Positions 11,069-37,402 are shown, numbered from the stretch's first letter. The stretch is DNA of 38,564 nucleotides from Solirubrobacterales bacterium (GCA_019240655.1 JAFAXX010000171.1:1-38564), one strand, 5' to 3'. Made by a program: numbers and translations. Notes: generated from the letters alone by a model not told the origin.

Positions 11069-12352
11069 TCACGAATGAGCCACCATCTGGGCCGGCGGGT
11101 CGACGCCGGGCAGGTAGCCCGCCGCACACGGTGAGCTGTCGAACTCCTCGGCGGCCGGCCCCTCTCCGAAGTAGTGCGCGATCGCGGCGACCGACCGCTG
11201 AGCGGCGAGGCCGTCGCCGTAGGGATTGACCGCGTTGGCCATCGCCGCATAGGCATCGGCATCGGTCAGCAGGCGGCCGACCATTGCGGCGATCAGGTCC
11301 TCGTCGGTTCCGACCAGGCGGACGGTGCCCGCGTGCACCGCCTCGGGTCGCTCGGTCGTCTCGCGCATCACCAGCACCGGCTTGCCAAGGCTCGGGCCTT
11401 CCTCCTGGACGCCGCCGCTGTCGGTGAGGATGACCGTGGCCCGGTTCATCAGCCGGGAGAATCCACCGTAGGGCAGCGGCTCGGTCACGGTCACGTTCGC
11501 GAGCCGGCCGATCGCCGGCAGCACCGCATCCCGGACGAGTGGGTTGCGGTGGATCGGGAAGACGATGCGCAGGTCGGGGTGCGAGCGTGCGATCCGGGCC
11601 AGCGCGCGGCCAACCGCGCGCAACGGGGCACCCCAGGACTCGCGCCGGTGTGCGGTGACCAGCAGCACCGGTCCAGGCGCCGCGTCCAGCGCTGCGAGCG
11701 CCGGATCGCCGTAGTCGAGTCGACAGGCGACCGCCCACAGCAGCGCGTCGATGACCGTGTTCCCGGTCACCACCACCGAGCTCGGGTCAACGTTTTCGGC
11801 CAGCAGGTTCGCGCGGCTGGTGGCGGTCGGAGCCAGGTGCAGCGCCGCCAGGCGCGTGGCCAGGCGCCGGTTTATCTCCTCCGGATAGGGCGCGTAGACG
11901 TCCCCGGTGCGCAGGCCGGCCTCGAGATGGAACACCGGGATCTTCTCGTAGAAAGCGGCCAGAGCGGCGGCGAAGACCGTCGTCGTATCACCTTGGACGA
12001 CGACGGCGTCCGGGGCCTGATCTGCCAGCAGCCTCCGCACGCCGGTGAGCGCGCGGGTCGTGATATCGGTGAGCGTCTGGCCGGGCTCGTGGATGTCGAG
12101 GTCGTAGTGGGGCGTGATTCCGAATACCTCATTGACCTGATCGAGCATGCTGCGGTGCTGGGCGGTGACCGCGACCAGCGGCGTGAACAGCGGTGAGTCG
12201 TCCAGGGCCCGGATCAGCGGTGCGACCTTGACCGCCTCCGGTCGTGTTCCGTACACGACCATGATGCGGCGCGGAGGCCCGGGTCTGACCGGCTCGGGCG
12301 CGGCGACCAGGTGGGGCTTCGACGGATTGCGGTGGCGGTCGGCGGCAGGCAT
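11069..12352 (-). CDS. wecB: UDP-N-acetylglucosamine 2-epimerase (non-hydrolysing)
   Basis: VYGTRPEAVKVAPLIRAL, VVQGDTTTVFAAALAAFYEKIPVFHLEAGLRTGDVYAPYPEEINRRLATRLA, ILTDSGGVQEEGPSLGKPVLVMRETTERPEAV. Confidence 0.95.
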   Translation of the reverse strand: MPAADRHRNPSKPHLVAAPEPVRPGPPRRIMVVYGTRPEAVKVAPLIRALDDSPLFTPLVAVTAQHRSMLDQVNEVFGITPHYDLDIHEPGQTLTDITTRALTGVRRLLADQAPDAVVVQGDTTTVFAAALAAFYEKIPVFHLEAGLRTGDVYAPYPEEINRRLATRLAALHLAPTATSRANLLAENVDPSSVVVTGNTVIDALLWAVACRLDYGDPALAALDAAPGPVLLVTAHRRESWGAPLRAVGRALARIARSHPDLRIVFPIHRNPLVRDAVLPAIGRLANVTVTEPLPYGGFSRLMNRATVILTDSGGVQEEGPSLGKPVLVMRETTERPEAVHAGTVRLVGTDEDLIAAMVGRLLTDADAYAAMANAVNPYGDGLAAQRSVAAIAHYFGEGPAAEEFDSSPCAAGYLPGVDPPAQMVAHS

Positions 12353-12362
12353 TACTTGCTCC

Positions 12363-15300
12363 TCATGGTTTGGGGTTGGCGGCGGCGGCCGACCCGGCGG
12401 GCAGCGCCTGAACGTGGATGTCGTCGAAGCGCGCGACCGAGTCCTCGGCGTAGACGCCGAAGCCGCCGGTCAGATACGGCCGCTCGGTGTCGACGAACTT
12501 GGTCAGCACACGGCCTTCGGCCGAGACCGTGATCTGATTGCCGCTCTGAACCACTCCCACGCGGTGCTCGGCGCCGATCGGGAACTGCGGAAGCTTGCCC
12601 GAGGCCAGGAATCGCTCACCGCCGGGATACGCCGGATCCTGCTTGGAGAGCAGCCAACCGGTCGGTTCGAGCGTCAACGCGTAGAAACGCTGCGGCGAGC
12701 TGTAGTGCCACACCACCCAGCCGACCTCCCACGGGTTGGGGGTACCGGCCGCCCCGTGACGCAGCTGGCGCGTCGTGCGAACCTGCGCGCCGGCGACGAA
12801 GTCCTGATACCAAGTCCGGCTCAGCACCAGGGCCGCGTGCGTCACCCGCGGGGATTGGGTGGTCGCGACCGAGAGGGTGATGGCCTGGCTCGGCCCGGAT
12901 CCGGTGAGCGACGTGTGGCCGTAGCCGCTGAACACCTGATACCAGTCGCTCCGCACGGGGCGGCTGTGGCCGCCGAACGACAGGAGGGCCACCCCGAGCG
13001 CCGCGAAGCCGACCGCGGCCGCCACCGACACCGTGCGGACGGACTTCTGCAACGGCGCACGCCGGCGCCCCGGCGGCCGAGGAGCACCCGAGGGCGAAGG
13101 CGCGGGTGCAGGGATGACGGCGAGGCGTCGATCGCCGTTTTGAGCGAACCGCGCCTGCGAGCTGTCCGGGCCTCGCTCGAGCGCCACCAGCGGAGCCTCA
13201 GCCACCCGATCGGTCTTAGACCAGTTGGTGCGGCGGCGCAGCGTGCGGCCGACCGCCCACCAGCCGGCGGCGTACCACATCAGGCAGTAGCCGACGTACA
13301 GATGGGCGAGCCCCGCAGTGCGGGCCAGCGACATACCGCGGTCGCGCTCGCGCAGCCAGTAGGTGTAGCTGTAGAGCACGGCCGGTCCGAAGGCCAGCGC
13401 GTAGGTCGAGAGCACCCACCAGCCGAGCGGGTTGCCCCCGTCGGCTGCGACGACTCCACTGCCGAGCAGCGAGCAGGCGAACGATGCGGTCAGTAGCGAG
13501 CCGATCAGCAGCAGCGCCGGGCTCGACAGGTGATAGAGGAGATCGACCCGCGCCGGCCGCGGCGCACCGCGCAGGATCCGCGGGATGAGCTTCCACGACT
13601 GCAGGTGGCCCTGGAACCAGCGCGAGCGTTGCCGGATCAGCCTTCGCAGCTCGATCACGCCCTGCTGATGGACAGCCGCCGTGTGGCAGTACTCGTTGCG
13701 CCAGCCCGCGGTGAGCAGGCGGATGCCGAGGTCGAGGTCCTCGGTCAGGCTGCGGGTCCACGGCGCCTCGCCGAGCGAGCGGAGCGCCGAGAGCCGCATG
13801 AACTGGCCGTTTCCACCCAGCCCGACACTGCCGAGATGACGCCGGCCGCGCTGGAAGACCTCGGTGTAGATGACGAACTCCATGTCCTGCATCCGGGCCA
13901 ACCGGCTCATCTCGCGGTTGTTGATGCGGACGCCGATCTGCACCGCGCCCACGGTCGGGTCGGCGAAGTACGGCGCGACCGCCGACAGGCTGTGCGGATC
14001 GACGCGGCCGTCGGCGTCGACGACCACGACGACGATCCGGTCGGGATCGCGACCCTCGAGCCACGAGCTCTCCGACAGCCGGGCGATGGCGGCATTCAGC
14101 GCCTCGCCCTTGCCCTGCCGGGCGTTCGGAGGCGTGCGCTGCATCAGCCGGACGCGCTCGTCCGCCACCCCCCTGACCGCTGCCGCGGTCCCGTCGTCGG
14201 AGCCGTCGTCGATCACCATCACCCCGAAGTTCTCGCCCGGCAACGAGAGCAGGCGCCGAAGGCTGTTGAGGATCACCTTCTCCTCGTTCAGGCACGGCAG
14301 CAGGAAGACGAAGAACAGCTCGTGCGCAGCGGCCGGCGGCGAGGCGCTCGCCATCGGCGCTCGGCGCCGGCGCCGGCGGCCGCGGGGCTCACGCCGCGAG
14401 GCGCCGAGCATCGTCAGTCCGTAGACGATCAGCAGTCCCACCGCGACGAGTGCCGCGATGGCCAGCGGCACCACCGCAGCGGCCCGTGAAGCCGACGCGA
14501 CCGGCGCGAGCGGCGGCGCGGTCGGGTTGGCGGCGGGCAGGGTGGCGACTGCGGTGGCCGTCCCGGCGGGTGTCCGGACGTTGATGCGCGCCTGCGCCGG
14601 CAGCGGGGCCGTGTCGGTGAAGCGCACGTAGTACTGACGGTTCAAGTCGGCACCGATTCGGCGCAGCGCGCCGGGCCAGTCGCCGGCCGTGCGGATGCGG
14701 GTGACGAAGCCGCCGTTTCCGGCGACGAGCGCCGTGTAGGCGGGCGCGCCCGTAGGGGAGGCGTCGAGCAGGTACAGCGAGGTGCCGCTGGCGGCCAGTT
14801 GCCGGCGCAGCCGCGCGCTCGCTGCCGCGCCGAGCGGTTCGTTCGCGCTCAGCACGAGAACCACCGTGCGCCGCACCGAGGCGCCCGGCGAGAACGCCGA
14901 CAGCGCCTCGGTGAGCCGGAGCGCCGCTGGCTCGCGCGGTCCGCGCGCGAGCGCGAGGTCGCTGGTCACCGCCGCGGCGGGATCGCCAGTCAGCTGGCCG
15001 GTGGCGGAGACCGCGGCCTCCGCGCCGGCGGGCAGCCCGGCGAGAAAGCCGGCGCCGGCGGAGCGCTCGAGCCCGAGCTCCGAGCTCCGCACGTGCAGGT
15101 CGGGCGAGAAGACGATCTGCAGATCGCCCGGGGAGAGCTGGCGGACGCTCGGGTGCTGCGACGCGCCCCCGACCTGGACAGTGATGTCCTTGCCGGTCAA
15201 CGGTCGCGAGGCCTGCGGCACGGTGATCACCATCCCGATCTCGGGCCGGCGCGAGACGTCGACCCGGAACGGCATGAGCGCAGTCGACAGTGCGCTCGCC

Positions 15301-15599
15301 GGCGAGGGCACCGGATTCATGGAGGCGTTGGTGGGGGGCCGGGCGGGCGGCGTCGAGCCGCCATGGGGTGCGCTGCTCTGACGTGCACTCGTGTGACGAG
15401 CGCTGGTGTGGCGGGGGGTGCTCTGGCGTGGGCTTCCCTGACGTCGGCCGCTGTGACGCGGGCTGCTCTGGCCGGGGCCGCCGTGGGCCGAGACGGCGGC
15501 CGCCGCCGTGACCGTCGCCAAGGCGGCGATCGCCAGAGCTGCGATCGCTAGAGCGGCGATCGCCAGGATCCCCGCGATCCGTCGGTGAAACCGCCTCAT
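12363..15599 (-). CDS. large fusion protein: signal/TM and VWA-like extracellular N-terminus, GT2 processive glycosyltransferase, C-terminal DUF1080/LamG-like domain
   Basis: GT2 motifs FVFLLPCLNEEKVILNSLRRLL, VMVIDDGSDDGT, VVVVDADGRVDPHS, LTEDLDLGIRL, RQRSRWFQGH. N-terminus MRRFHRRIAGILAIAALAIAALAIAALATV and RTVVLVLSANEP...GTSLYLLDASP. C-terminus DFVAGAQVRTTRQL...WEVGWVVWHYSSPQRFYALTLEPTGWLL...FGVYAEDSVARFDDIHVQAL. Start 15599 gives 1078 aa. Confidence 0.85.
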   Translation of the reverse strand: MRRFHRRIAGILAIAALAIAALAIAALATVTAAAAVSAHGGPGQSSPRHSGRRQGSPRQSTPRHTSARHTSARQSSAPHGGSTPPARPPTNASMNPVPSPASALSTALMPFRVDVSRRPEIGMVITVPQASRPLTGKDITVQVGGASQHPSVRQLSPGDLQIVFSPDLHVRSSELGLERSAGAGFLAGLPAGAEAAVSATGQLTGDPAAAVTSDLALARGPREPAALRLTEALSAFSPGASVRRTVVLVLSANEPLGAAASARLRRQLAASGTSLYLLDASPTGAPAYTALVAGNGGFVTRIRTAGDWPGALRRIGADLNRQYYVRFTDTAPLPAQARINVRTPAGTATAVATLPAANPTAPPLAPVASASRAAAVVPLAIAALVAVGLLIVYGLTMLGASRREPRGRRRRRRAPMASASPPAAAHELFFVFLLPCLNEEKVILNSLRRLLSLPGENFGVMVIDDGSDDGTAAAVRGVADERVRLMQRTPPNARQGKGEALNAAIARLSESSWLEGRDPDRIVVVVVDADGRVDPHSLSAVAPYFADPTVGAVQIGVRINNREMSRLARMQDMEFVIYTEVFQRGRRHLGSVGLGGNGQFMRLSALRSLGEAPWTRSLTEDLDLGIRLLTAGWRNEYCHTAAVHQQGVIELRRLIRQRSRWFQGHLQSWKLIPRILRGAPRPARVDLLYHLSSPALLLIGSLLTASFACSLLGSGVVAADGGNPLGWWVLSTYALAFGPAVLYSYTYWLRERDRGMSLARTAGLAHLYVGYCLMWYAAGWWAVGRTLRRRTNWSKTDRVAEAPLVALERGPDSSQARFAQNGDRRLAVIPAPAPSPSGAPRPPGRRRAPLQKSVRTVSVAAAVGFAALGVALLSFGGHSRPVRSDWYQVFSGYGHTSLTGSGPSQAITLSVATTQSPRVTHAALVLSRTWYQDFVAGAQVRTTRQLRHGAAGTPNPWEVGWVVWHYSSPQRFYALTLEPTGWLLSKQDPAYPGGERFLASGKLPQFPIGAEHRVGVVQSGNQITVSAEGRVLTKFVDTERPYLTGGFGVYAEDSVARFDDIHVQALPAGSAAAANPKP
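15523..15567 (-). repeat. three 15-bp repeats within the GT2-fusion signal/TM segment (AIAAL repeats)
   Basis: gcggcgatcgccaga / gctgcgatcgctaga / gcggcgatcgccagg at 15523, 15538 and 15553. Confidence 0.9.
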
Positions 15600-15796
15600 C
15601 GCGCTCGGCGGCGGTCGTTGAAGCGTCCCACGCTGCCAGCGACGAGCAGCCCGACGACGATCAGGAAATAGAGCGCGAACAGCGCCCCCGCCGCGTCGAG
15701 CAGCACCCAGGCTCCGCTCCAGAAGACCGCCGCGTGGCGAAGCTCGGTCGCCGAGGCGACCATGGTCAAGCTCGCTGGCCCAGCTGAGTAATGCAT
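15596..15796 (-). CDS. small single-TM protein translationally coupled to the GT2 fusion
   Basis: MHYSAGPASLTMVASATELRHAAVFWSGAWVLLDAAGALFALYFLIVVGLLVAGSVGRFNDRRRAR*; its stop overlaps the 15599 ATG (ATGA). Confidence 0.6.
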   Translation of the reverse strand: MHYSAGPASLTMVASATELRHAAVFWSGAWVLLDAAGALFALYFLIVVGLLVAGSVGRFNDRRRAR

Positions 15797-16002
15797 AGTT
15801 GCCCCGCGCCCGCCGGCGGTGAGCCGTCCGTGGATTTGGCCGTCTCCGGCGAGCGTTCTGCGTCGTTGGTCGAAATTCGACCGGGCGGAGCGGTCGTTGC
15901 GACCGGGCACGGAGGTGCCAGGTGCGGGTGACCGCGCCAACCCAATCGGCGGAAGCTTGGCAGCCGAGGTGTGACACCTGAAGGGGTCGGCCCGGCGAGT
16001 TT

Positions 16003-16018
16003 GCGTTCACGCTTGAAC
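16003..16018. promoter_or_regulatory. candidate operator GCGTTCA-CGCT-TGAAC
   Basis: GTTCA-N4-TGAAC palindrome in the divergent intergenic region between 15796(-) and 16115(+); matches palindromes at 20054, 20077 and 36689. Confidence 0.6.
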
Positions 16019-17586: not shown

Positions 17587-19917
17587 TCAGCCCCCGGTTA
17601 CGGTGGGATCAGTTGGTCCGACGAATGTGTAGCCGAGGTTCTTGATCCCGGTCACGATCGTCTGGAGATTGGCCAGCGGGTTGTCGTTAGCGTCGTAGAA
17701 GAAGCTCGCGAAACCCTGCCGGACGGCGAGGTTCACCTTCGCCTCGTTGATGATGTCGGACTCCACTCGCGGCGGATTGCCGTTCTGGGCCGTGGGCTCG
17801 TAGTCACCCAGGTTCTCCGGGAGGATTTCCTCGCCGTACGCGTCGTGAACCACGTAGGGGAAGAACTGCCCGAAGGTGTGGCTGTAGTCGAGCGCGGCGC
17901 CCGGCGTGATCAGTCCGCTCGGGAACGTCTCGCGCTCGTAACGGACTGGGAACTGGCTGTCGATGGCCGCGTAGTCGGGGGCCGAGGCGAAGTAGTGCGG
18001 CGTGATCCACACCGACGGCACCGTCAGCCCCGCCTGCTGGAACAGAGCTTTCCCGGTGGTGACCCGCTCGGTCGCCCAGGCCTGTGAGTCTCCGTCGACC
18101 GGGCCCGTCCAAACGACGTAGTCGGTGGTCGGGCACGGGCTGGTTGCCGTGACGGTCACCGGCGTCGCTGTGTTTTGTGTGCTGGAGCACACCGCCTTGT
18201 AGAACTCCGCGTCATCGCCGCTGATCCCGGTGTACGGGTTCGGGACGTTGGAGTACTGGTGGGTGTAGCCCTCCTCGTTCAGCGTCCCGCCTTTGGACTC
18301 GATGTACTTGAGGGCGGCGACGACCCCGGGCTCGTCCGCGAGCGTCTTGGTGCACGGCGCTCCCGCCGGGATTCCCGCGCAGGCCGCGACGTTGGCGTTG
18401 TCGACCCCCAGCGGGTCGGTGTACTCCGGGATCACGTTGACGCTGAACGGCACGTTCTGCGAAGCCATGTAGTCCGCAAACGACTGCAGCGTGGCGGGGT
18501 TGGAGGCCGGCGAAACGTCCTCGAGCCGGACCATCGCCTGGTGCGACGGCGTCGCCGACGGATCGAGGGCATCGAACAGCAGGTCCGAGAAGATCAGGTA
18601 ACGATCGGTCTCGGAAATGTACGAGAACGGGTCCTCGCCGACGTAGGTCAGGTTGGACGACCGGATCGCCCACGGGAACGTCGATCCGACGCTGGCGCCC
18701 GGTGCCTGCGAGGCGCAGTTGGCGGGCGGCGTAGCGGTGCTGCAGTTGGCCTCCGCCAGCACCTTCACGGTCGCCGAGTTAGTGATGTGCGGCTGGAGCA
18801 TCTGGCCGGTGCCATTCAGGGCGTTCCGGGTGAACGTCTGGCCGTTGTAGGTGACCGTGGTCGGGTTGTCCAGTGTGTCGAAGTAGGACGAGGACGGGTC
18901 CCAGCCGTACTTGGCGATGAAGGCGGAGTTCGCGCTGCCGCCCGCGGTCCCGGACAGCTGCCAGATGTTTTGTCCCGCCCAGATCACCGGGTGGCTGGTG
19001 GCGAGCACGTCGTTCAGGAATGCGGTCGGGATCGGCTCGTTGTACGTCGAGCCGACGTAGACGGTCGCGGTGTACTGGTCGATCTGGCCGGACTGGTAGT
19101 CCGCGACCGGCTCGGCGGTGATCTTGCCGAAGTGGGTGGCCAGGTTGCCCGCGGCGATGGCGTCGAGCTCGCCGATCCAGCCGTACTGGCCGGTGGTGTC
19201 GTAGACGACCAGCGTGGTCGCCTTGCCGCTCGCACCCCACGTCTTAGCCTGGGGAGGTGTGACCGGCGTCGGCGTCGGAGTGGTCGTCGTGGGGGTTGGC
19301 GTGGTCGTGGTGGTAGTCGGTGTCGTCGGGCTCGGGCTCGGGCTCGGAGTCGGATTCGTGTAGTGGGGCGGCGGCGCCGGCACCTTCGGCGCCGCGGGCG
19401 GCGCCGGAATCGGCTTGTTGGCGACCGGAGGCGTGGGCGTCTTCGGCGCGCTCGTCAGCTTGAACCTCAGCGTGTGGCGCGCGGAGTTGCGTCTCGCATT
19501 CTGGGCCACCACGGTGGCGAGGTACTGACCCGCCGGCAACCCGGCGAGGGTCACCTTGAAGTGGTTCTTGCCGCGAGCGCCCTGGTAGACGTGCATCGCG
19601 ACCTGGACGGTGACGCTGCACGGCTTGCCCTTACCGGGCCGCGTCTGACAACGGCCGTGCGCTCGGTGGCCTGCCAGTGTGCGTCCAATCGCCACGGTGA
19701 CCCGGGCCCGGCCTGACAGCGTCATGTTCAGAGTGCGGGTGACGCCCGACCCGGAGAGGTTCAGATGCGTGATCACGGGCGGCGCGGGATGCTTGGCCGC
19801 GACCGAAGCCGAGGGCCACAGCAGCGCTGACGGCGCGAGCGCGGCGAGCGCGAGAAGCGCGCGGACGCACCCGGTTCGCGTCGCGGACCCGCGAAACGAG
19901 GAGAGAAAACTGCCCAC
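17587..19917 (-). CDS. secreted DUF2334 (polysaccharide deacetylase-like) protein with Pro/Thr-rich linker
   Basis: MVRLEDVSPASNPATLQSFADYMASQNVPFSVNVIPEYTDP...GGTLNEEGYTHQYSNVPNPYTGISGDDAEFY, DUF2334-like; low-complexity linker PSPSPSPTTPTTTTTTPTPTTTTPTPTP. GTG 19917 start (VGSFLSSFRG) is inferred. Confidence 0.8.
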   Translation of the reverse strand: MGSFLSSFRGSATRTGCVRALLALAALAPSALLWPSASVAAKHPAPPVITHLNLSGSGVTRTLNMTLSGRARVTVAIGRTLAGHRAHGRCQTRPGKGKPCSVTVQVAMHVYQGARGKNHFKVTLAGLPAGQYLATVVAQNARRNSARHTLRFKLTSAPKTPTPPVANKPIPAPPAAPKVPAPPPHYTNPTPSPSPSPTTPTTTTTTPTPTTTTPTPTPVTPPQAKTWGASGKATTLVVYDTTGQYGWIGELDAIAAGNLATHFGKITAEPVADYQSGQIDQYTATVYVGSTYNEPIPTAFLNDVLATSHPVIWAGQNIWQLSGTAGGSANSAFIAKYGWDPSSSYFDTLDNPTTVTYNGQTFTRNALNGTGQMLQPHITNSATVKVLAEANCSTATPPANCASQAPGASVGSTFPWAIRSSNLTYVGEDPFSYISETDRYLIFSDLLFDALDPSATPSHQAMVRLEDVSPASNPATLQSFADYMASQNVPFSVNVIPEYTDPLGVDNANVAACAGIPAGAPCTKTLADEPGVVAALKYIESKGGTLNEEGYTHQYSNVPNPYTGISGDDAEFYKAVCSSTQNTATPVTVTATSPCPTTDYVVWTGPVDGDSQAWATERVTTGKALFQQAGLTVPSVWITPHYFASAPDYAAIDSQFPVRYERETFPSGLITPGAALDYSHTFGQFFPYVVHDAYGEEILPENLGDYEPTAQNGNPPRVESDIINEAKVNLAVRQGFASFFYDANDNPLANLQTIVTGIKNLGYTFVGPTDPTVTGG

Positions 19918-20053
19918 TGGAGACCTTCCTTGTCTTGAGGAGCGCGACGTCCACGCCCGGATTCGGGGAGCCATGTGCTCGGCGCCCCATTGCTGGCGCG
20001 CAGTGTGGACGAGACGACACGACGCCGCCAATGGCCTCAGCCGGCCGTTCCGC

Positions 20054-29311: not shown

Positions 29312-30355
29312 TTGCGGGTTCTCGTCACCGGACACAACGGCTACATCGGCTCGGTCCTCCTGCCGATCCTGCAGGCAGCCGGCCACGACGTGGCCGGACT
29401 CGATGCCGACCTCTTTGCTCGCTGCGTGATGGGCGACCCGCCGGCCGACGTCGAGTCGGTTCGGAAAGACATCCGCGCCGTCGAGACCGAGGACTTTCTT
29501 GGCTTCGACGCGGTGATCCACCTGGCCGCCGTTTGCAACGACCCGGTGGGCGATCTCAACCCGCAGGCGACCTACGACATCAACCACCGCGGTTCGATTC
29601 GCGTCGCCGAGAAGGCCAAGGCGGCCGGCGTGCCCCGTTTGCTGTTCTCTTCCTCCTGCAGCCTGTACGGCAGGGCGGGCGAGCGGATGCTCGACGAGAC
29701 GGCCCGCTTCGCGCCCGTGACTCCCTACGGTCGCTCGAAGGTTCTGTCCGAGCGCGACATCTCTGCCCTCGCCGATCAGGATTTCTGCCCGACCTACCTG
29801 CGCAATGCCACCGCCTACGGCTTCTCGCCGCGTCTGCGTCTCGATGTCGTGGTGAACAACCTCGTCGGATACGCGCACACGATCGGCGTGATCCTGATGC
29901 AGAGCGACGGCACGCCTTGGCGTCCGCTGGTTCACGTCGAGGACATCGCCCGGGCGTTCCTGGCCGTGCTGGACGCACCGCCAGAGCTCGTGCACGACCA
30001 GGCTTTCAACGTGGGGGCCAGTTCGGAGAACTACCGGATCCGGGAGGTGGCGGAGATCATCGCCGACGTGATGCCCGGTACTCGCGTCGCGTTCGCCCAG
30101 GGCGGCGGACCCGACAAGCGCTCATATCAGGTCGACTGCTCGAAGCTGGCTCGTGTGTTGCCTGCCGCCGCCCCGAAATGGACGGTACGCCGCGGAGCGG
30201 AGGACCTGCGCGACACCTATGCGCGCCATGGTTTGACCGAGGAGGACCTCAGCGGGTCGCGCTTCGTGCGCATCAAGCGGGTGACCGAGCTGCAAACGGC
30301 CGGACGCCTGGACGACGATCTGCGCTGGCGGGTGCCCGCCGGCTCGGCGCGATGA
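29312..30355 (+). CDS. NAD-dependent epimerase/dehydratase (extended SDR, sugar-nucleotide type)
   Basis: [18 protein letters not shown] (GxxGxxG), [35 protein letters not shown] (YxxxK). TTG start. Confidence 0.9.
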
Positions 30356-30485: not shown

Positions 30486-32606
30486 TTGAAAGCGTGGCGG
30501 GCGGGCGCTTTTGCGTCCCCAATCCCAGTCAGAACCCGAAGGCCGACCTTGCCAGAGATCCCGAACCCTCGGCGACGGCTCCGCGGAAGCGCTCGCCTGC
30601 GCGCGACGCCCACCGGACCGGAGGCCGACCCCGGCCGCGACGCGGCCGCTCCGGTTCTGCGGACATATCGACAGAGCTGGTCTCAGGGCCGTGCTGGGAA
30701 TTTCCGTGAGGACGCGGAGGGGACGCTTTCGCCCTTCCCGTGGCCACCTGGGGCCCGCAACGACGGCAGCGAGCAGCCGCCGAGCATCGGCGGGCGCCCG
30801 GGTTCGGGCGGCGAGCAACTTTTGCTCGCGCCGGAGCCGGAGCAGGCCGCCTACGACTACGAGCGGTACGCGCAGCTCACCGGGCCGCTGATCGAGCCGC
30901 TGTCGGCCGAGGCCCCCGTCCGATATCAGCGGCTTCCCGATGCCCGCCCCCGGCGACACCTGCTCGGCGCGATAGCGGTTCTGCTGATCCAGTCCGCCTT
31001 CCTGGTGTGGCTGCTGCTTCCAAGCCACCTTCCGCTGCACAACTCGTCACCGGTGCTCGCGGTGGCGTCGATCGTGATGCTCACCTCGATCTATCTGATT
31101 GAGGTGTTTCGGCTGTTGAACGTGACCAGCCTCTGCCTGGCGTCAGCTCTGGCGAGGGACCCGGTGCCGATGGTGCCGCTGCGCGGCACCCGCGTCGCCT
31201 TCCTGACCACGATCGTGCCGTCCAAGGAGCCGATTTCGGTCGTCGAACCGACACTACGCGCGGCGCTGGAAGTGCGCCACGCCGGCACGCTCGACGTTTG
31301 GCTGCTCGACGAGGGCAACGATCCGGCGGTTCGGAGAATCTGCGCCGGACTCGGGGTTCGCCACTTCAGCCGGCACGGCATCAAGCGCTGGAACCAGCCC
31401 GATGGGCGGTACAAGGCGCGGACGAAGCACGGCAACTACAACGCATGGATCGACTGCTACGGGGACGGATACGACTTCTTCGTCTCGGTCGACCCTGACC
31501 ACGTTCCGCTCCCGAGCTTCTGCGAGCGGCTGCTGGGCTACTTCCGCGATCCCGAGGTTGCCTTCGTGGTCGGCCCCCAGGTCTACGGGAATTACGACAA
31601 CTTCGTGACTAAGTGCGCCGAATCTCAGCAGTTCGTATTCCACGGCCTGATCCAGCGCATGGGCAACTACTTCCGCTGCCCCATGTTGGTCGGCACCAAC
31701 AACGCGGTACGGATAGCCGCGCTCAAGGACATCGGCGGCTTGCGAGACAGCATTACGGAGGATCTGGCCACCAGTCTGGTCTGTCATTCGACGCGCAACC
31801 CGCGCACGCGCCGATCGTGGCGGTCGGTGTACACGCCGGACGTGCTGGCGATCGGGGAGGGGCCGGCGAACTTCACGGACTTCTTCAGCCAGCAGCACCG
31901 GTGGAGCCGGGGGACGTTCGAGAACCTGCGCGGCCATTTCTGGCACTCCCTCCGCTCACTCTCGCGCGGCGCGCGGCTTCACTACTCGCTCATCACGTCT
32001 TACTACCCGACCGCTGCGATCGGATGGATCTTAGGTGCGGTCAACTGCATGCTCTACCTGCTGCTGGGGGCCTCGGGCATACGCGTGCAGCCGCATATCT
32101 GGATCGCGGTATACGTCGACCTCGCCATGGTCCAGTTCTCCCTCTACGCCTCCAATCGCAAGCACAACGTCTCGCCGCACGAGTCGAGCGGCTCCTCCGG
32201 CGTCGCCGGCATGTTCATCTCCGTGCTCGCCGCTCCGATCTACGTGGTCGCCCTAATCGGCACGCTCGTCCGGACCGGGAGCAGCTTCGTGGTCACGCCC
32301 AAAGGTGCTTCCCGATCGGTCGACCGGCTGGCGACGTTCCGCTGGCACCTGGGCTGGGGCGCGGTGCTGGCAATGGCGCTCGGTGCCTCGCTGTGGATGA
32401 ACCACCCGCAATCAAGCATGCGGCTGTGGTCCCTGACTCTGATCGCGGTTTGCCTCACGCCGCTCACCATTACGCTGACCTCGCGGGCGCTCTTGCGACG
32501 GCGAACCGCTCCGGCGCGCGAGACGGCCGCGAAAGTCACGCCGGTGGCGAGCCGAGGCCGCAGTCGCGACCACGGATTCGCCAGGGCTGCCGAAGACGCG
32601 AGATGA
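30486..32606 (+). CDS. CslA-like GT2 processive beta-glycan synthase (cellulose synthase-like)
   Basis: VAFLTTIVPSKEPISVVEPTLRAAL, VWLLDEGND, FFVSVDPDHVPLPSF, RDSITEDLATSL, FFSQQHRWSRGTFEN (Q-x-x-R-W), multiple TM segments. True start uncertain. Confidence 0.88.
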   Translation: MKAWRAGAFASPIPVRTRRPTLPEIPNPRRRLRGSARLRATPTGPEADPGRDAAAPVLRTYRQSWSQGRAGNFREDAEGTLSPFPWPPGARNDGSEQPPSIGGRPGSGGEQLLLAPEPEQAAYDYERYAQLTGPLIEPLSAEAPVRYQRLPDARPRRHLLGAIAVLLIQSAFLVWLLLPSHLPLHNSSPVLAVASIVMLTSIYLIEVFRLLNVTSLCLASALARDPVPMVPLRGTRVAFLTTIVPSKEPISVVEPTLRAALEVRHAGTLDVWLLDEGNDPAVRRICAGLGVRHFSRHGIKRWNQPDGRYKARTKHGNYNAWIDCYGDGYDFFVSVDPDHVPLPSFCERLLGYFRDPEVAFVVGPQVYGNYDNFVTKCAESQQFVFHGLIQRMGNYFRCPMLVGTNNAVRIAALKDIGGLRDSITEDLATSLVCHSTRNPRTRRSWRSVYTPDVLAIGEGPANFTDFFSQQHRWSRGTFENLRGHFWHSLRSLSRGARLHYSLITSYYPTAAIGWILGAVNCMLYLLLGASGIRVQPHIWIAVYVDLAMVQFSLYASNRKHNVSPHESSGSSGVAGMFISVLAAPIYVVALIGTLVRTGSSFVVTPKGASRSVDRLATFRWHLGWGAVLAMALGASLWMNHPQSSMRLWSLTLIAVCLTPLTITLTSRALLRRRTAPARETAAKVTPVASRGRSRDHGFARAAEDAR

Positions 32607-34552
32607 CGAAGCCGAGGCGTTCGGCGCATCTGCGGAGGGTCCACGGCGTCGTCGCCGCGGTGCTCGTCTGTGCGTTACTGGCCGTCAACGGCCCGCCGGT
32701 GGTCGCTTTCATCCGCGACGCCTACCACAACATCGTTATCAACACCGCGTCGTACAAGCGGCGCTACGGCCACTGGTCGGTGCTCCCCGTGCCGTCCAAC
32801 ATGCGAGTGAACGCGGTGCACGCAATCATGCTTCACACCGGCAAGGTCCTGATCATGGCCGGTTCGGGCAACGACGCGGCTGAGTTCGCGGCCGGCAAGT
32901 TCGTGTCGGTGATCTGGAACCCGGCGAACAACAGCTTCAAGAAGATCACGACGCCGACCGACATGTTCTGCGGCGGTCACGTCATCCTGCCCGACGGCAA
33001 GGTCCTGATCGGCGGCGGGACGACGCGCTATGAGGTGGAGCGAAGCCAGATCGAATACGCCGCCGGCGTGATGACGGTCACCAACACGAGCCCGACCGCC
33101 AGTACGACGCTTCCCGCCGGCACGGTTTTCCGCTCCCGGTCGGGGTACCTGTTCAAGTCGGTCAGCGCGACGGCGATCCCGAAGGCGCAGAGGAAGTTCG
33201 TCGGCGCCGGCGCGCAGCGCAAGGCAGTCGTCGTACCGAGCAACGCACCGCTCTGGGTGACGGCGACTGAGCGCGGCGACGCGCCCGTCAGCCGGACCTT
33301 CCGGACGTACGGGATCGAGGGACTCGCGTCCGGATACGCGGCGGCCATGACGGCCACATCGTGGAATCTCACGCGTGATATCCAGACTTTCTGGGGATCC
33401 CGCGTGACCTATCTCTTCGACCCCGTGACCGAGCGCTACGAGAAGCTCTCGGACATGAACCTGGCGCGGTGGTATCCGAGCCTTGTGGGCCTGACGAACG
33501 GGAAGGTGCTCGCGGTCTCCGGACTCGACGGCCTTGGCCAGATGATCGACGGAAACACCGAGGAGTGGGATCCAGGCACGCACGAGTGGACGATCGACAA
33601 GACACTGACCCGGCCGTTTCCGACCTATCCGGCGCTCTTCTTGTTGCCAGACGGGAATCTCTTCTTCACCGGATCGTCCGCCGGCTACGGCCCTGTGACC
33701 GCCGCGTGGCGGACGCCCGGCATCTGGAATCCCATGACCAACGCCTTCACTCCGGTATACGGAATGCGCGACGCCGATCTCACCGAGACGAGTGCGAGCG
33801 TGCTGCTCCCACCGGCGCAGAACCAGCGCTATGCGATCATCGGCGGAGGGGGAGCGGGCCAGACGAATACCGGGACCGGGCGCATCGACGTCGTCGACCT
33901 CAATTCCCGTAATCCCCGCTGGCAGCCGGCCGGCTCGCTTCCCGAGCAGACGCGCTATCCCGAGGCGATCGTAACCCCCGACGACCGAGTCGTGATCGCC
34001 GGTGGCTCCAAGTACTACCGGGGCGAAGAGCAGAGTGACATCTTCGAATGCCATCTGTACAACCCCCAGACCGGGAAGGTCAGTACCCTGGCATCGCCGA
34101 CCGTCGGACGCGACTATCACTCCGAGGCGCTGCTGCTTGCCGACGGACGCATCCTCACGCTGGGCGGGAATCCGCTGTTCGGCAATAAAGCCGACACCAC
34201 GCCGGGCTACTTCGAGCAGCGGATCGAGATCTATTCACCCCCCTACCTGTACCGCGGTGCGCGGCCGCGTCTGACCGCTGGTCCCACTGAGGTTCGGCAC
34301 GGCCAGACCGTACTCTTCGCGACCCCGGATGCCGCCAAGATCGCGACGGCGCGGTTGATCCGGCCAAGCGCCGTGACCCACGTTACGGATCTCGAGCAGC
34401 GGTCGATCGCCCTCGGGTTGCGGCGAATGGACTCCGCCGTCGCTCTGACCGTCCCGACGGGCTCAGGTCTGGTGCCGCCAGGCTGGTACATGCTGTTCGT
34501 GACCGCCGCCAACGGGACGCCTTCGGTGGCGCGGTGGGTTCACGTCGACTAG
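32603..34552 (+). CDS. glxA: GlxA-like copper-radical oxidase (galactose/glyoxal oxidase family, kelch repeats plus DUF1929 early-set domain)
   Basis: MFCGGHVILPDGKVLIGGG, ARWYPSLVGLTNGKVLAVSGLDG, RDYHSEALLLADGRILTLGGNP, AVTHVTDLEQRSIAL. N-terminal TM; ATGA overlap with the CslA-like gene. Confidence 0.88.
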   Translation: MTKPRRSAHLRRVHGVVAAVLVCALLAVNGPPVVAFIRDAYHNIVINTASYKRRYGHWSVLPVPSNMRVNAVHAIMLHTGKVLIMAGSGNDAAEFAAGKFVSVIWNPANNSFKKITTPTDMFCGGHVILPDGKVLIGGGTTRYEVERSQIEYAAGVMTVTNTSPTASTTLPAGTVFRSRSGYLFKSVSATAIPKAQRKFVGAGAQRKAVVVPSNAPLWVTATERGDAPVSRTFRTYGIEGLASGYAAAMTATSWNLTRDIQTFWGSRVTYLFDPVTERYEKLSDMNLARWYPSLVGLTNGKVLAVSGLDGLGQMIDGNTEEWDPGTHEWTIDKTLTRPFPTYPALFLLPDGNLFFTGSSAGYGPVTAAWRTPGIWNPMTNAFTPVYGMRDADLTETSASVLLPPAQNQRYAIIGGGGAGQTNTGTGRIDVVDLNSRNPRWQPAGSLPEQTRYPEAIVTPDDRVVIAGGSKYYRGEEQSDIFECHLYNPQTGKVSTLASPTVGRDYHSEALLLADGRILTLGGNPLFGNKADTTPGYFEQRIEIYSPPYLYRGARPRLTAGPTEVRHGQTVLFATPDAAKIATARLIRPSAVTHVTDLEQRSIALGLRRMDSAVALTVPTGSGLVPPGWYMLFVTAANGTPSVARWVHVD

Positions 34553-34675
34553 CTGCTGGCCGAACGGAAAGCTCTCCCGTCACCGGCGGGTGCGGATCGC
34601 CGGACCTATAGCCACGCTGCGTGCCCGACATCGAAGCCCGGGCGCAACGTGTCGCATGAGTTGTGCCGCAGTCCC

Positions 34676-35695
34676 TCAGTGCCCACCGCGGGCGAGCGCC
34701 AGCGCGTAGGCCGGCCACCAGTTGCCGGCGGGGGGATCGCCGGGATTACACTGCCCGTCTGACGCGCCGGGATACTTAACCCATAGCAGGGCGTCGACCA
34801 GTGGATTTCCGGTGTCGGTCGTGGGCGGCGTGCCGAGAGCACGGCCGGGCGGGTTGCACCAGTGATTGGATCCGGAGCCCGGAGGGGGGCCGTTGCCGTT
34901 GCGGCTGGTGTCGATGATGAAGTGGCGGCCGCCGAGGCGCTCCGACAGGGTTTGGCCGTAGGCAATCGAGGCGCTGGTGGTCTGAAAGTTCGCGACATTG
35001 AGCGCGAAGCCGTCGGCGTCGGCGATGCCGGATCGCTCGAGCGGACCGACGATCCGCGCGGCCGGAAGCCAAGCGGCGTTGCCGGCGTCGAGGTAAACGT
35101 GCACGCGCGCCAGCCGCTTCAGGGTGCTCACCGCTTGCGAGAGCAGGCTGTAGCGGAGGGATATCTGGTCACCCGGCAGGCAGCCGGAGACCGCCTGGTC
35201 GACGGCATCGGGCTCGACGATGAATATGGCGGGATTCCGACCGATGCCCGCGGCGACCGCACGCACCCAGTCCAGGTAGCCGCTTGCCGTGCTCGCGCCT
35301 CCGGAGGAATAGTTCTGGCAGTCCCGGTCGGGGATGTCGTAGAGCACGAACTGTCCGGCGGCGCCGCCGCGGGCGGCGGCGGCGACCGTCTGGGTGGTGG
35401 TGCGCACGGATTCCGGGTCGCCGGTGAGCCACACGGCGGTGGGCTCCCTGGCGATGCGCTGCACCGCTGCAGCCGGCGCGGTGTTGCCCTGCGAGCGCCA
35501 GACCGCCGCCTGCACGGCCGCCGGGTTGTTCGGATCCACCCACAGGCGAAGGCCGCCGAGCGGGCCCGTCGGTCTCGCCGGCCGGGCGGGATGCTTCGAT
35601 TGCTCGCCGCATCCCGCCGCTGCGAGCGCGACGCACCCCGCTAAGAGGGTCGCTGTAGGGAGCCGAGCTCGCCGAAGGAAGCAGAATCTTGCCAA
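34676..35695 (-). CDS. glycoside hydrolase family 6 (endoglucanase/cellobiohydrolase-like), secreted or lipoprotein
   Basis: FVLYDIPDRDCQNYSSGG, IFIVEPDAV, HVYLDAGNAAWL, FIIDTSRNGNGPPPGS...WCNPPGRALGTPPTTDTGNPLVDALLWVKYPGASDGQC: GH6 hallmark motifs. Confidence 0.93.
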   Translation of the reverse strand: MARFCFLRRARLPTATLLAGCVALAAAGCGEQSKHPARPARPTGPLGGLRLWVDPNNPAAVQAAVWRSQGNTAPAAAVQRIAREPTAVWLTGDPESVRTTTQTVAAAARGGAAGQFVLYDIPDRDCQNYSSGGASTASGYLDWVRAVAAGIGRNPAIFIVEPDAVDQAVSGCLPGDQISLRYSLLSQAVSTLKRLARVHVYLDAGNAAWLPAARIVGPLERSGIADADGFALNVANFQTTSASIAYGQTLSERLGGRHFIIDTSRNGNGPPPGSGSNHWCNPPGRALGTPPTTDTGNPLVDALLWVKYPGASDGQCNPGDPPAGNWWPAYALALARGGH

Positions 35696-35850: not shown

Positions 35851-36489
35851 TCAAGCTGCGACCGGTTGCCGCGGCGCGCGCGTCAGCGGCGTCGACCCGA
35901 GGCGCTGCAGCTCCCGCTGCAAGGCTCGCCGGCCGCGGTGATGCAGGCCGTGGATCGCGCCTTCCGAGCGGCCCATCCGGTCGGCGATCTCGCCGGGTGT
36001 GAGGCCGACGACGTGACGAAGGATCACGACCTGACGCTGCTCGTCCGGCAGCGTGGCCAACGCGACCTTGACCGCGTCCGCGCAGTCGGAATCCGCCCGG
36101 TAGCTCGCGTCCGGATCGACGACCGTCTCGGTGGGCGTCAGCCGGTTGGCCCGGAGATGATCGATGGCCGCGTTGCGGGCAAGGCGCAGCAGCCACGCGA
36201 AGAACGGCACGCCGCGGTCGTCGTAGCGGACGAGCGTCGTCATCAGCTTCGCGAAGACGTGCTGGGTCACGTCCTCGGCTTCGTGGTCGTCGCGCACGAT
36301 CGAGCGCACGTAGCCGTAGATGTTGTGCGAGTAAGTGACGTACAGATAGCGGATCGCCTCCTGATCACCCTCCTTGGCGCGTGCGACCGCGAGCCGCGTC
36401 CTGTCGCGCGTCTCGTGGGACTCGTCCAGCGACGTCCGGCTTCTGAAGCCGATAGTCCCTGGCGTCGCCGAAAATGCTTCCTTGATCAC
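35851..36489 (-). CDS. ECF-type RNA polymerase sigma factor
   Basis: RYLYVTYSHNIYGYVRSIVRDDHEAEDVTQHVFAKLM, LPDEQRQVVILRHVVGLTPGEIADRMGRSEGAIHGLHHRGRRALQREL. GTG 36489 preferred over 36630. Confidence 0.88.
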   Translation of the reverse strand: MIKEAFSATPGTIGFRSRTSLDESHETRDRTRLAVARAKEGDQEAIRYLYVTYSHNIYGYVRSIVRDDHEAEDVTQHVFAKLMTTLVRYDDRGVPFFAWLLRLARNAAIDHLRANRLTPTETVVDPDASYRADSDCADAVKVALATLPDEQRQVVILRHVVGLTPGEIADRMGRSEGAIHGLHHRGRRALQRELQRLGSTPLTRAPRQPVAA

Positions 36490-36686
36490 GTCGTCCCCCT
36501 TGCTGAAACGTCCTGTGCCCGGCAGCCACGCATACCCTCGCCACCGACGACCGCCGTGCCCACTCGATCCGACGAGCCGGCTGCGGTCGTACCCCGGCCT
36601 TCCTGTTCGGAAGCGGGGTACTGCCCTCACGCCTGAGTATTAGGACGCGAGGCTGCGGGGTCAATGACCGAGCAGGCGCATTTGCA

Positions 36687-36705
36687 GCGTTCACCGGATG
36701 AACGC
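36687..36705. promoter_or_regulatory. candidate operator GCGTTCA-CCGGA-TGAACGC
   Basis: Perfect 7-bp arms, 5-nt spacer, ~70-80 bp upstream of the second atypical LuxR regulator. Confidence 0.7.
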
Positions 36706-36772
36706 GTTCTGGGGCTTTGCGCCTACCGACGCCGGCGAGGTCGTCCGCGCGGCAGCCCGGAGATGTGCTCCA

Positions 36773-37402
36773 ATGAACGCTCCGATGCGCTTGCTCCTCG
36801 CCGATCACCCCGCCACACGAGCGGGAATCCGGATTGCGCTCGCGGGTCGAGCCGATGTGTGCGCGGAGGTCGGTGACGCCGAGGCAGCGACCCGAGCGGC
36901 GGAGCGCGAGCAGCCGGACGCGTGCCTGCTCAGCCGCGACATCCCGGGTGATTGGGTGGCCGCTGTGCGTGGCATCGGCGCCGTCGCCCCGCACGCGGCG
37001 GTCGTCGTGCTGTCGGAGCTCGGTGAGGCTGCGGAGCTACTGACCGCGGTGCGCGCCGGCGCCGTGGGGTACGTGCCCGGCACGCTGGACGCGAACCGCG
37101 TGCAGCGGATCATCGCGGCGATCGCCGCCGGCGAGGCGGTGGTGCCGCGGGCTATGGTCGCCGATCTCCTGCTCGCGCTGCGCGTTGGAGGCGGCGCCGC
37201 GAACGGGCTGACCGCGAGGGAGTCACAGGTGCTGGCCATGCTCCGCCGTGGGAGCACCACGGCCGCGATCGCGACGCAACTGGGTATCGCGCCGGTGACG
37301 GTGCGCCGGCACATCTCCGGGCTGGTACAGAAGCTCGGCGTCGAGGATCGCGCCGCGCTTGCCAACGCCGGCTCGCAGTCAGAAGGCGGACGCCGCGAGT
37401 AA
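36773..37402 (+). CDS. LuxR/NarL-family regulator with atypical (Asp-less) receiver domain
   Basis: MRLLLADHPATRAGIRIAL, PDACLLSRDIPG (Ser at the expected phospho-Asp position), GAVGYVPGTL (no Lys); HTH GLTARESQVLAMLRRGSTTAAIATQLGIAPVTVRRHISGLVQKLG. Start 36773 or 36785. Confidence 0.85.
   Translation: MNAPMRLLLADHPATRAGIRIALAGRADVCAEVGDAEAATRAAEREQPDACLLSRDIPGDWVAAVRGIGAVAPHAAVVVLSELGEAAELLTAVRAGAVGYVPGTLDANRVQRIIAAIAAGEAVVPRAMVADLLLALRVGGGAANGLTARESQVLAMLRRGSTTAAIATQLGIAPVTVRRHISGLVQKLGVEDRAALANAGSQSEGGRRE

What the first reader, a model, noticed from the sequence alone, without database searches (positions are those of the whole stretch)
30486..35695. CslA-GlxA-GH6 module: beta-glycan synthase, copper-radical oxidase and cellulase
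The CslA-like GT2 gene overlaps the oxidase gene by ATGA, and a convergent GH6 gene lies just downstream. In Streptomyces, cslA-glxA with a nearby GH6 gene (cslZ) makes a tip-localised glycan needed for morphology (established). The oxidase retains all expected copper-radical ligands by motif: Cys123 (MFCGG) and Tyr291 (RWYPS) for the Cys-Tyr cofactor, Tyr505-His506 (RDYHS) and His593 (VTHVTDLEQR), numbered from ATG 32603. If this organism is a non-filamentous deep-branching actinobacterium, the module would need another role such as cell envelope or biofilm.
Basis: partly seen in the sequence, partly recalled or inferred. Interest (0 to 1): 0.68.

Follow-up and report, generated by a model that had tools for sequence, protein, structure and literature searches.

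The report
Streptomyces-type cellulose-synthase module in Solirubrobacterales
A soil bacterium that is only distantly related to Streptomyces carries the three-gene set (cellulose-type synthase, copper-radical oxidase, cellulase) that Streptomyces uses to coat its growing tips, so this machinery is not confined to thread-forming bacteria of the Streptomyces kind.

Summary
cslA (probable start 30822, not 30486) overlaps glxA (32603-34552) by ATGA, and a convergent GH6 gene follows (34676-35695, minus strand). The oxidase is a true GlxA: it passes NCBI's GlxA equivalog cut-off (821 against 800 bits), its modelled fold is closest to S. lividans GlxA (TM 0.78/0.82), and Cys123, Trp290, Tyr291, Tyr505, His506 and His593 are invariant in 33 GlxA sequences. 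CslA has a seven-helix cellulose-synthase fold with its catalytic motifs. The GH6 has a likely lipoprotein signal and its catalytic aspartates. The host is a Solirubrobacterales (Thermoleophilia) MAG, not a streptomycete. Full-length GlxA and CslA occur in exactly the same 6 of 399 Thermoleophilia genomes; their GlxA forms its own clade, apart from Streptomyces and Micromonosporaceae. A 2013 paper said the three-gene linkage occurs only in Streptomyces; that no longer holds. None of the six carriers has an LPMO or SsgA; all have the copper chaperone Sco. Most likely it is a membrane beta-1,4-glucan (cellulose) synthase complex with a GH6 that helps the glycan through the wall. Product and host shape are inferred, not shown. 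New member of a known kind, unexpected lineage.

The parts
30822..32606 (+). cslA: GT2 cellulose-synthase-like glycosyltransferase, about 594 aa, 7 predicted transmembrane helices; probable start TTG 30822 (the open frame reaches back to TTG 30486)
   Evidence: Pfam GT2; BcsA/CesA hits; codon-position GC; homology start; AF2 model
31491..32306 (+). CslA catalytic motifs (numbered from 30822): DPDH 224, TED 312, QQHRW 357, FVVTPKG gating loop 489
32603..32606 (+). ATGA overlap: cslA stop and glxA start
32603..34552 (+). glxA: membrane-anchored radical copper oxidase, 649 aa
   Evidence: NCBIfam NF052501 821.5 bits against cut-off 800; Pfam GlxA barrel and E-set; 4unm
32630..32704 (+). GlxA N-terminal transmembrane anchor (residues 10-34)
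   Evidence: hydropathy; helix 9-29 in model
32969..32971 (+). Cys123 of the Cys-Tyr cofactor (S. lividans C121)
33470..33475 (+). Trp290 (stacking Trp, S. lividans W288) and Tyr291 (cross-linked Tyr)
34115..34120 (+). Tyr505 and His506, copper ligands
34379..34381 (+). His593, copper ligand
34676..35695 (-). GH6 beta-1,4-glucanase (cslZ-like), convergent with glxA; probable lipoprotein (AAAGC, Cys29)
   Evidence: Pfam E=1.1e-65; M. tuberculosis Cel6 1uoz E=1e-67; signal sequence read
34910..35323 (-). GH6 catalytic aspartates Asp125, Asp163, Asp262
   Evidence: Asp163 and Asp262 in 34 of 34 GH6 rows, Asp125 in 33 with a gap in the other; alignment with Cel6
35851..37402 (.). flanking ECF-type sigma factor (-) and LuxR/NarL response regulator (+): neighbours also present without the module in other species of the genus, so not counted as module genes

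Best explanation
This is a CslA-GlxA(-CslZ) beta-glucan synthase module of the kind known from Streptomyces, carried by a Solirubrobacterales bacterium. CslA, a membrane GT2, polymerises UDP-glucose (or a related sugar nucleotide) into a beta-1,4-glucan and moves it across the membrane. GlxA is anchored beside it by its N-terminal helix, is loaded with copper (probably by a Sco chaperone) and forms the Cys123-Tyr291 cofactor; it is needed for synthesis and may oxidise primary alcohols of the chain. The lipoprotein GH6 sits outside the membrane and trims the glucan and/or opens the wall so that it reaches the surface. Shown here: gene content, order, fold, catalytic residues, co-occurrence and ancestry. 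Inferred from Streptomyces: complex formation, cellulose as product, export role of GH6. Guess: in this host the glycan is an envelope or biofilm coat, not a hyphal-tip coat.
For: GlxA equivalog cut-off passed; fold and sequence nearest S. lividans GlxA; copper-site residues invariant in 33 GlxA sequences. CslA motifs and BcsA/CesA fold with 7 TM helices, as reported for S. lividans CslA (PMC11022532). GH6 catalytic set complete. CslA and full-length GlxA in exactly the same 6 of 399 class genomes. Same linkage in 16 Micromonosporaceae and 10 streptomycete-like loci. Sco homologues in all six carriers, one beside the module in G183. Purified S. lividans CslA-GlxA makes cellulose in vitro (PMC11022532).
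Against: No LPMO (PF03067) in any of the six carriers, and no DyP peroxidase in the window's genome; both serve this pathway in Streptomyces. CslA scores far below the CelA equivalog cut-off (95.5 against 699 bits), so the polymer is not settled by sequence. Purified GlxA from S. lividans shows no significant activity with galactose and various mono- and disaccharides (PMC4736821), so its reaction on the glycan is unknown anywhere. The genome is a 91.5% complete MAG, so single absences are soft.
Confidence: 0.82

Rival explanations
1. The synthase makes a beta-glycan other than cellulose (mixed or substituted), and GlxA oxidises its primary alcohols, so this is an oxidised exopolysaccharide system.
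For: CslA is well below the CelA cut-off. The copper-radical site is intact, which is hard to explain if GlxA were only a scaffold. The in vivo glycan is unproven even in Streptomyces (PMC11022532).
Against: S. lividans CslA-GlxA makes cellulose from UDP-glucose in vitro. The DxD, TED, QxxRW and FxVTxK motifs of cellulose synthases are kept. The partner is a GH6, a beta-1,4-glucanase family.
Confidence: 0.25
2. The module was recently acquired from Streptomyces or Actinoplanes relatives, or the contig is mis-binned.
For: Patchy: 2 of 28 same-genus and 6 of 399 class genomes. cslA and glxA have lower G+C (66%) than the window (70%), the pattern read as transfer in Streptomyces (PMC3543389).
Against: Nearest GlxA is from the same genus (62%), and Thermoleophilia GlxA is one clade (97/92) outside the Streptomyces and Micromonosporaceae clades. 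The sigma factor next door is 63-75% identical to those of eight same-genus genomes. The other carrier in the genus has the module in the same place.
Confidence: 0.07
3. The GH6 is a secreted scavenging cellulase that lies beside cslA-glxA by chance.
For: Its orientation and number change between carriers.
Against: A GH6 adjoins or lies within about 3 kb of cslA-glxA in all 16 Micromonosporaceae and 10 streptomycete-like loci and in every Thermoleophilia carrier where linkage can be read. It has a lipoprotein signal and no binding module. CslZ is needed with LpmP for glycan deposition in S. coelicolor (PMC9040799).
Confidence: 0.08

Closest known systems
cslA-glxA-cslZ of Streptomyces (SCO2836-2838; S. 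lividans SLI_3187-3189)
   Same: Same three families and order; translationally coupled pair here; GH6 convergent as in Streptomyces; all copper-site residues; 7-TM CslA; lipoprotein GH6.
   Different: Host is Solirubrobacterales; no LpmP (LPMO), no SsgA, no DyP peroxidase found in this genome; the upstream neighbour is an NAD-dependent epimerase rather than the SCO2833-2835 genes; the CslA tail before the first conserved motif is very short.
cslA-glxA-GH6 loci of Micromonosporaceae (Actinoplanes, Couchioplanes, Catenuloplanes and others)
   Same: Same gene set, about 44-57% identical proteins.
   Different: GH6 mostly co-oriented with glxA (14 of 16 loci); separate GlxA clade.
cslA-glxA-GH6-GH6 of Solirubrobacterales MAG CP_BM_RX_R8_24 (JAFAYV01, locus L031)
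   Same: Same genus, same site next to the sigma factor and LuxR genes; GlxA 62%, CslA 66-69%.
   Different: Two GH6 genes, one co-oriented and one convergent; the window has only the convergent one.
bcsA-bcsB-bcsZ of Gram-negative bacteria
   Same: Synthase, membrane-anchored extracytoplasmic partner, endoglucanase; CslA shares the BcsA fold.
   Different: GlxA is unrelated to BcsB; no Pfam PilZ domain in CslA; curated CelA/BcsA cut-off not met.

Membership tests
GlxA radical copper oxidase (NF052501) | score above the curated equivalog cut-off over full length | tested here: met
   821.5 bits against 800, residues 6-648
GlxA radical copper oxidase (NF052501) | Cys-Tyr cofactor pair, stacking Trp, axial Tyr, two His | tested here: met
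   C123, W290, Y291, Y505, H506, H593 invariant in 33 GlxA; aligned with 4unm
GlxA radical copper oxidase (NF052501) | fold: kelch propeller, GlxA barrel domain, E-set | tested here: met
   Pfam; best fold match 4unm, TM 0.78/0.82
GlxA radical copper oxidase (NF052501) | copper binding and oxidase activity | not testable with these tools
   needs purified protein
CslA-type cellulose synthase | GT2 motifs DxD, TED, QxxRW, FxVTxK and 7 TM helices | tested here: met
CslA-type cellulose synthase | operon with, and dependence on, GlxA | tested here: inconclusive
   ATGA-coupled and perfect co-occurrence; dependence not testable
UDP-forming cellulose synthase CelA/BcsA (TIGR03030) | curated cut-off of the equivalog model | tested here: not met
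   95.5 against 699 bits; not filed as BcsA
GH6 (CslZ-like) | GH6 domain, catalytic Asp residues, lipoprotein signal, linkage to glxA | tested here: met
Streptomyces apical glycan pathway | LPMO partner LpmP | tested here: not met
   no PF03067 in G000 or five other Thermoleophilia carriers; found in both streptomycete-like controls
Streptomyces apical glycan pathway | Sco copper chaperone | tested here: met
Streptomyces apical glycan pathway | DtpA-type DyP peroxidase | tested here: not met
   none in G000; present in G011, G366, G179
Streptomyces apical glycan pathway | deposition at hyphal tips in a sporulating mycelium | not testable with these tools
   SsgA absent; DivIVA-like proteins present but weak

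The most novel reading that the evidence does not exclude
The CslA-GlxA glucan synthase is an old actinobacterial cell-envelope system that also works in single-celled, non-sporulating Thermoleophilia, with the GH6 alone (no LPMO) taking the glycan through the wall; its role at hyphal tips is a later use in Streptomyces.
Probability: 0.45. Interest if true: 0.55.

Novelty: new member of a known kind. Interest (0 to 1): 0.42.

Why it matters
CslA-GlxA is a cellulose synthase complex whose partner subunit is a copper-radical enzyme, and the work I found studies it only as a morphogenesis system of Streptomyces. A 2013 survey concluded that the cslA-glxA-endoglucanase linkage exists only in Streptomyces and that glxA came from fungi (PMC3543389). 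Finding the intact set in Solirubrobacterales, with its own GlxA clade and strict co-occurrence with CslA, widens the system across two actinobacterial classes. It also offers natural variants without LPMO and SsgA, which would help separate what the glycan does from what hyphal growth does.

Tried and rejected
Considered a regulatory link to the adjacent sigma factor and LuxR genes and dropped it: both occur near each other in eight same-genus genomes without the module, mostly with a histidine kinase gene between them. Tried to define the empty site; the left flanks of non-carriers share no gene with either carrier apart from loosely similar asparagine synthases (34%), so the site could not be closed. 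Tested whether Thermoleophilia CslA is polyphyletic: the free tree splits it, but one clade is not rejected (p-AU 0.109). Searched plasmids for a mobile carrier: one Streptomyces plasmid record only. Looked for papers on cellulose synthesis in Solirubrobacterales or on this module outside filamentous genera: none relevant in the library. Model coordinates are not in the box, so distances in the copper site were not measured. One alignment failed on a stop codon and was redone without that row.

Full report
Observation. A GT2 frame runs 30486-32606 (+), an oxidase frame 32603-34552 (+), and a GH6 frame 34676-35695 (-). The sequence at 32600-32609 reads gagATGAcga, so the stop of the first gene and the start of the second share ATGA. 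One coordinate needs correcting. The GT2 frame is open from 30483, but its first 100 or so codons show no codon-position bias; G+C at the second position drops to about 0.5 and at the third rises to about 0.9 only from about 30786. Matches to other CslA proteins also start just after the TTG at 30822 (residues 4-9 of the 594-residue version). I take 30822 as the likely start; the only other in-frame starts are the TTGs at 30486 and 30549.

The oxidase. It passes NCBI's equivalog model for GlxA (NF052501, 821.5 bits against a cut-off of 800, residues 6-648). Pfam finds the GlxA barrel domain and the galactose-oxidase E-set domain. The best solved relative by sequence is S. lividans GlxA, 4unm, E=5.7e-172 over residues 39-648; fungal galactose oxidases follow much further down, over the C-terminal part only. 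An AlphaFold2 model built from 19 aligned sequences (mean pLDDT 79.8, pTM 0.76) matches 4unm best (E=8e-68, TM 0.78/0.82). They and Trp290, the counterpart of the S. lividans Trp288 that governs cofactor formation (PMC13094651), are the same in all 33 GlxA sequences compared. The sequence alignment puts C123 on S. lividans C121 and W290 on W288.

The synthase and the hydrolase. CslA hits cellulose synthases BcsA of E. coli and Rhodobacter by sequence (E about 1e-15) and by fold (E=3.6e-21 for E. coli BcsA, TM 0.61/0.45; hyaluronan synthases and plant CesA follow). The fold model is of moderate confidence (pLDDT 70) and shows seven long helices that fit membrane spans, two before and five after the catalytic domain; S. 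lividans CslA is also described with seven (PMC11022532). DPDH, TED, QQHRW and FVVTPKG are present. The protein is far below the curated CelA/BcsA cut-off (95.5 against 699 bits), so it is not filed as BcsA. The GH6 protein is closest among solved structures to M. tuberculosis Cel6 (E=1e-67). It keeps the three catalytic-region aspartates found across the linked GH6 proteins, has no binding module by Pfam, and begins with a signal sequence ending in AAAGC that I read as a lipobox. S. coelicolor CslZ is a lipoprotein too (PMC9040799).

The host. The window is a whole contig of a 4.06 Mb, 91.5% complete assembly. Genome G011, placed in the same genus, has the module on a 42,624-base contig that matches in length and content the named record JAFAYV010000044, Solirubrobacterales bacterium CP_BM_RX_R8_24. 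The host is therefore Solirubrobacterales, class Thermoleophilia. The contig is not a stray: the sigma factor beside the module is 63-75% identical to those of eight other genomes of the genus, and the nearest GlxA and CslA are from G011 (62%; 66%).

Distribution. Full-length GlxA is in 2 of 28 genomes of the genus and in 6 of 399 sampled genomes of the class (a seventh match, G139, covers only the C-terminal part and groups with other galactose-oxidase-like sequences). A separate search with CslA returns exactly the same six genomes. Among 397 genomes drawn from the phylum, full-length GlxA appears only in the window's genome and in one other genus, g152. A pattern scan of named genomes adds 16 loci in Micromonosporaceae, in every one of which cslA precedes glxA and a GH6 follows. 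The 2013 statement that this linkage is present only in Streptomyces (PMC3543389) therefore no longer holds. The 2022 survey (PMC9040799) shows clusters of filamentous actinobacteria in a figure that could not be read here, so I cannot say that the Micromonosporaceae cases are new.

Ancestry. In the GlxA tree, Thermoleophilia sequences are one group (97/92), Streptomyces another (100/100) and Micromonosporaceae a third (98/99); inside the first, the branching follows relatedness at genus and family level. The outgroup branches are long, so the order of the three groups is not settled. The CslA tree puts the window, G011 and G179 together (98/98) and two same-family genomes elsewhere (92/86), but a single Thermoleophilia clade is not rejected (p-AU 0.109). 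The GH6 of the window groups with both GH6 genes of G011 (100/94). G011 has one GH6 in line with glxA and one facing it; the window has only the facing one. GH6 faces glxA in all ten streptomycete-like loci and follows in line in 14 of 16 Micromonosporaceae loci. The cslA and glxA genes have lower G+C (66%) than the GH6 gene (71%) and the window (70%). The same contrast in Streptomyces was used to argue for transfer; seeing it in a separate lineage suggests it may come from protein composition instead, but I did not test that.

Partners. Sco copper chaperones are in all six carriers; in G183 a Sco gene lies next to the GH6 genes of the module, as reported for Frankia (PMC4736821). No LPMO (PF03067) was found in any of the six carriers, while both streptomycete-like control genomes have several. 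A DyP peroxidase is absent from the window's genome but present in G011, G366 and G179. SsgA, the sporulation family of mycelial actinomycetes, is absent from all the Thermoleophilia genomes tested. DivIVA-like matches are present but weak (30 bits). GGDEF proteins, the source of the cyclic-di-GMP needed for full activity in S. lividans, are present, four in this genome.

How it most likely works. In S. [quoted passage not shown] Sco and DtpA mature GlxA (PMC4736821); CslZ and LpmP together let the glycan through the peptidoglycan (PMC9040799). The Solirubrobacterales module has the residues and domains needed for synthesis and for the copper-radical site, and the hydrolase for export. It lacks the LPMO; but single deletion of either lpmP or cslZ in S. 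coelicolor reduces and does not abolish tip staining, so a GH6 alone could suffice. Complex formation, product and export are carried over from Streptomyces and are not shown here. That the glycan serves as an envelope or biofilm coat is a guess: cultured Solirubrobacterales known to me are rods (own knowledge, not tested), and I found no description of cells of this organism.

Verdict. The finding is a new member of a known system, of moderate interest for its host and for the missing LPMO.

Noticed in passing
window 11069-16010 (-): A 1215-aa protein with a second GT2 domain next to a UDP-GlcNAc 2-epimerase: another polysaccharide locus in the same contig.
   Followed up: no
window 17587-20031 (-): 814-aa protein with a DUF2334 domain, not far from the GT2/epimerase pair.
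   Followed up: no
window 29312-30355 (+): NAD-dependent sugar epimerase/dehydratase directly upstream of cslA; not next to cslA in the other carrier of the genus, so not counted as part of the module.
   Followed up: partly
L071 16362-17102 (-): Sco copper chaperone gene directly after the two GH6 genes of the cslA-glxA locus in genome G183.
   Followed up: partly
L071 12286-12873 (-): Truncated second CslA copy beside the intact one in G183, apparently decayed.
   Followed up: partly
L069 and L070: The palsa_649 genome (G366) has two full-length GlxA genes on different contigs, one linked to cslA and a GH6 pair, the other on a 5.7 kb contig.
   Followed up: no
L073 7998-12828 (-): In G179 (another family of the class) the GH6 lies upstream of cslA instead of downstream of glxA, all three on one strand.
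   Followed up: no
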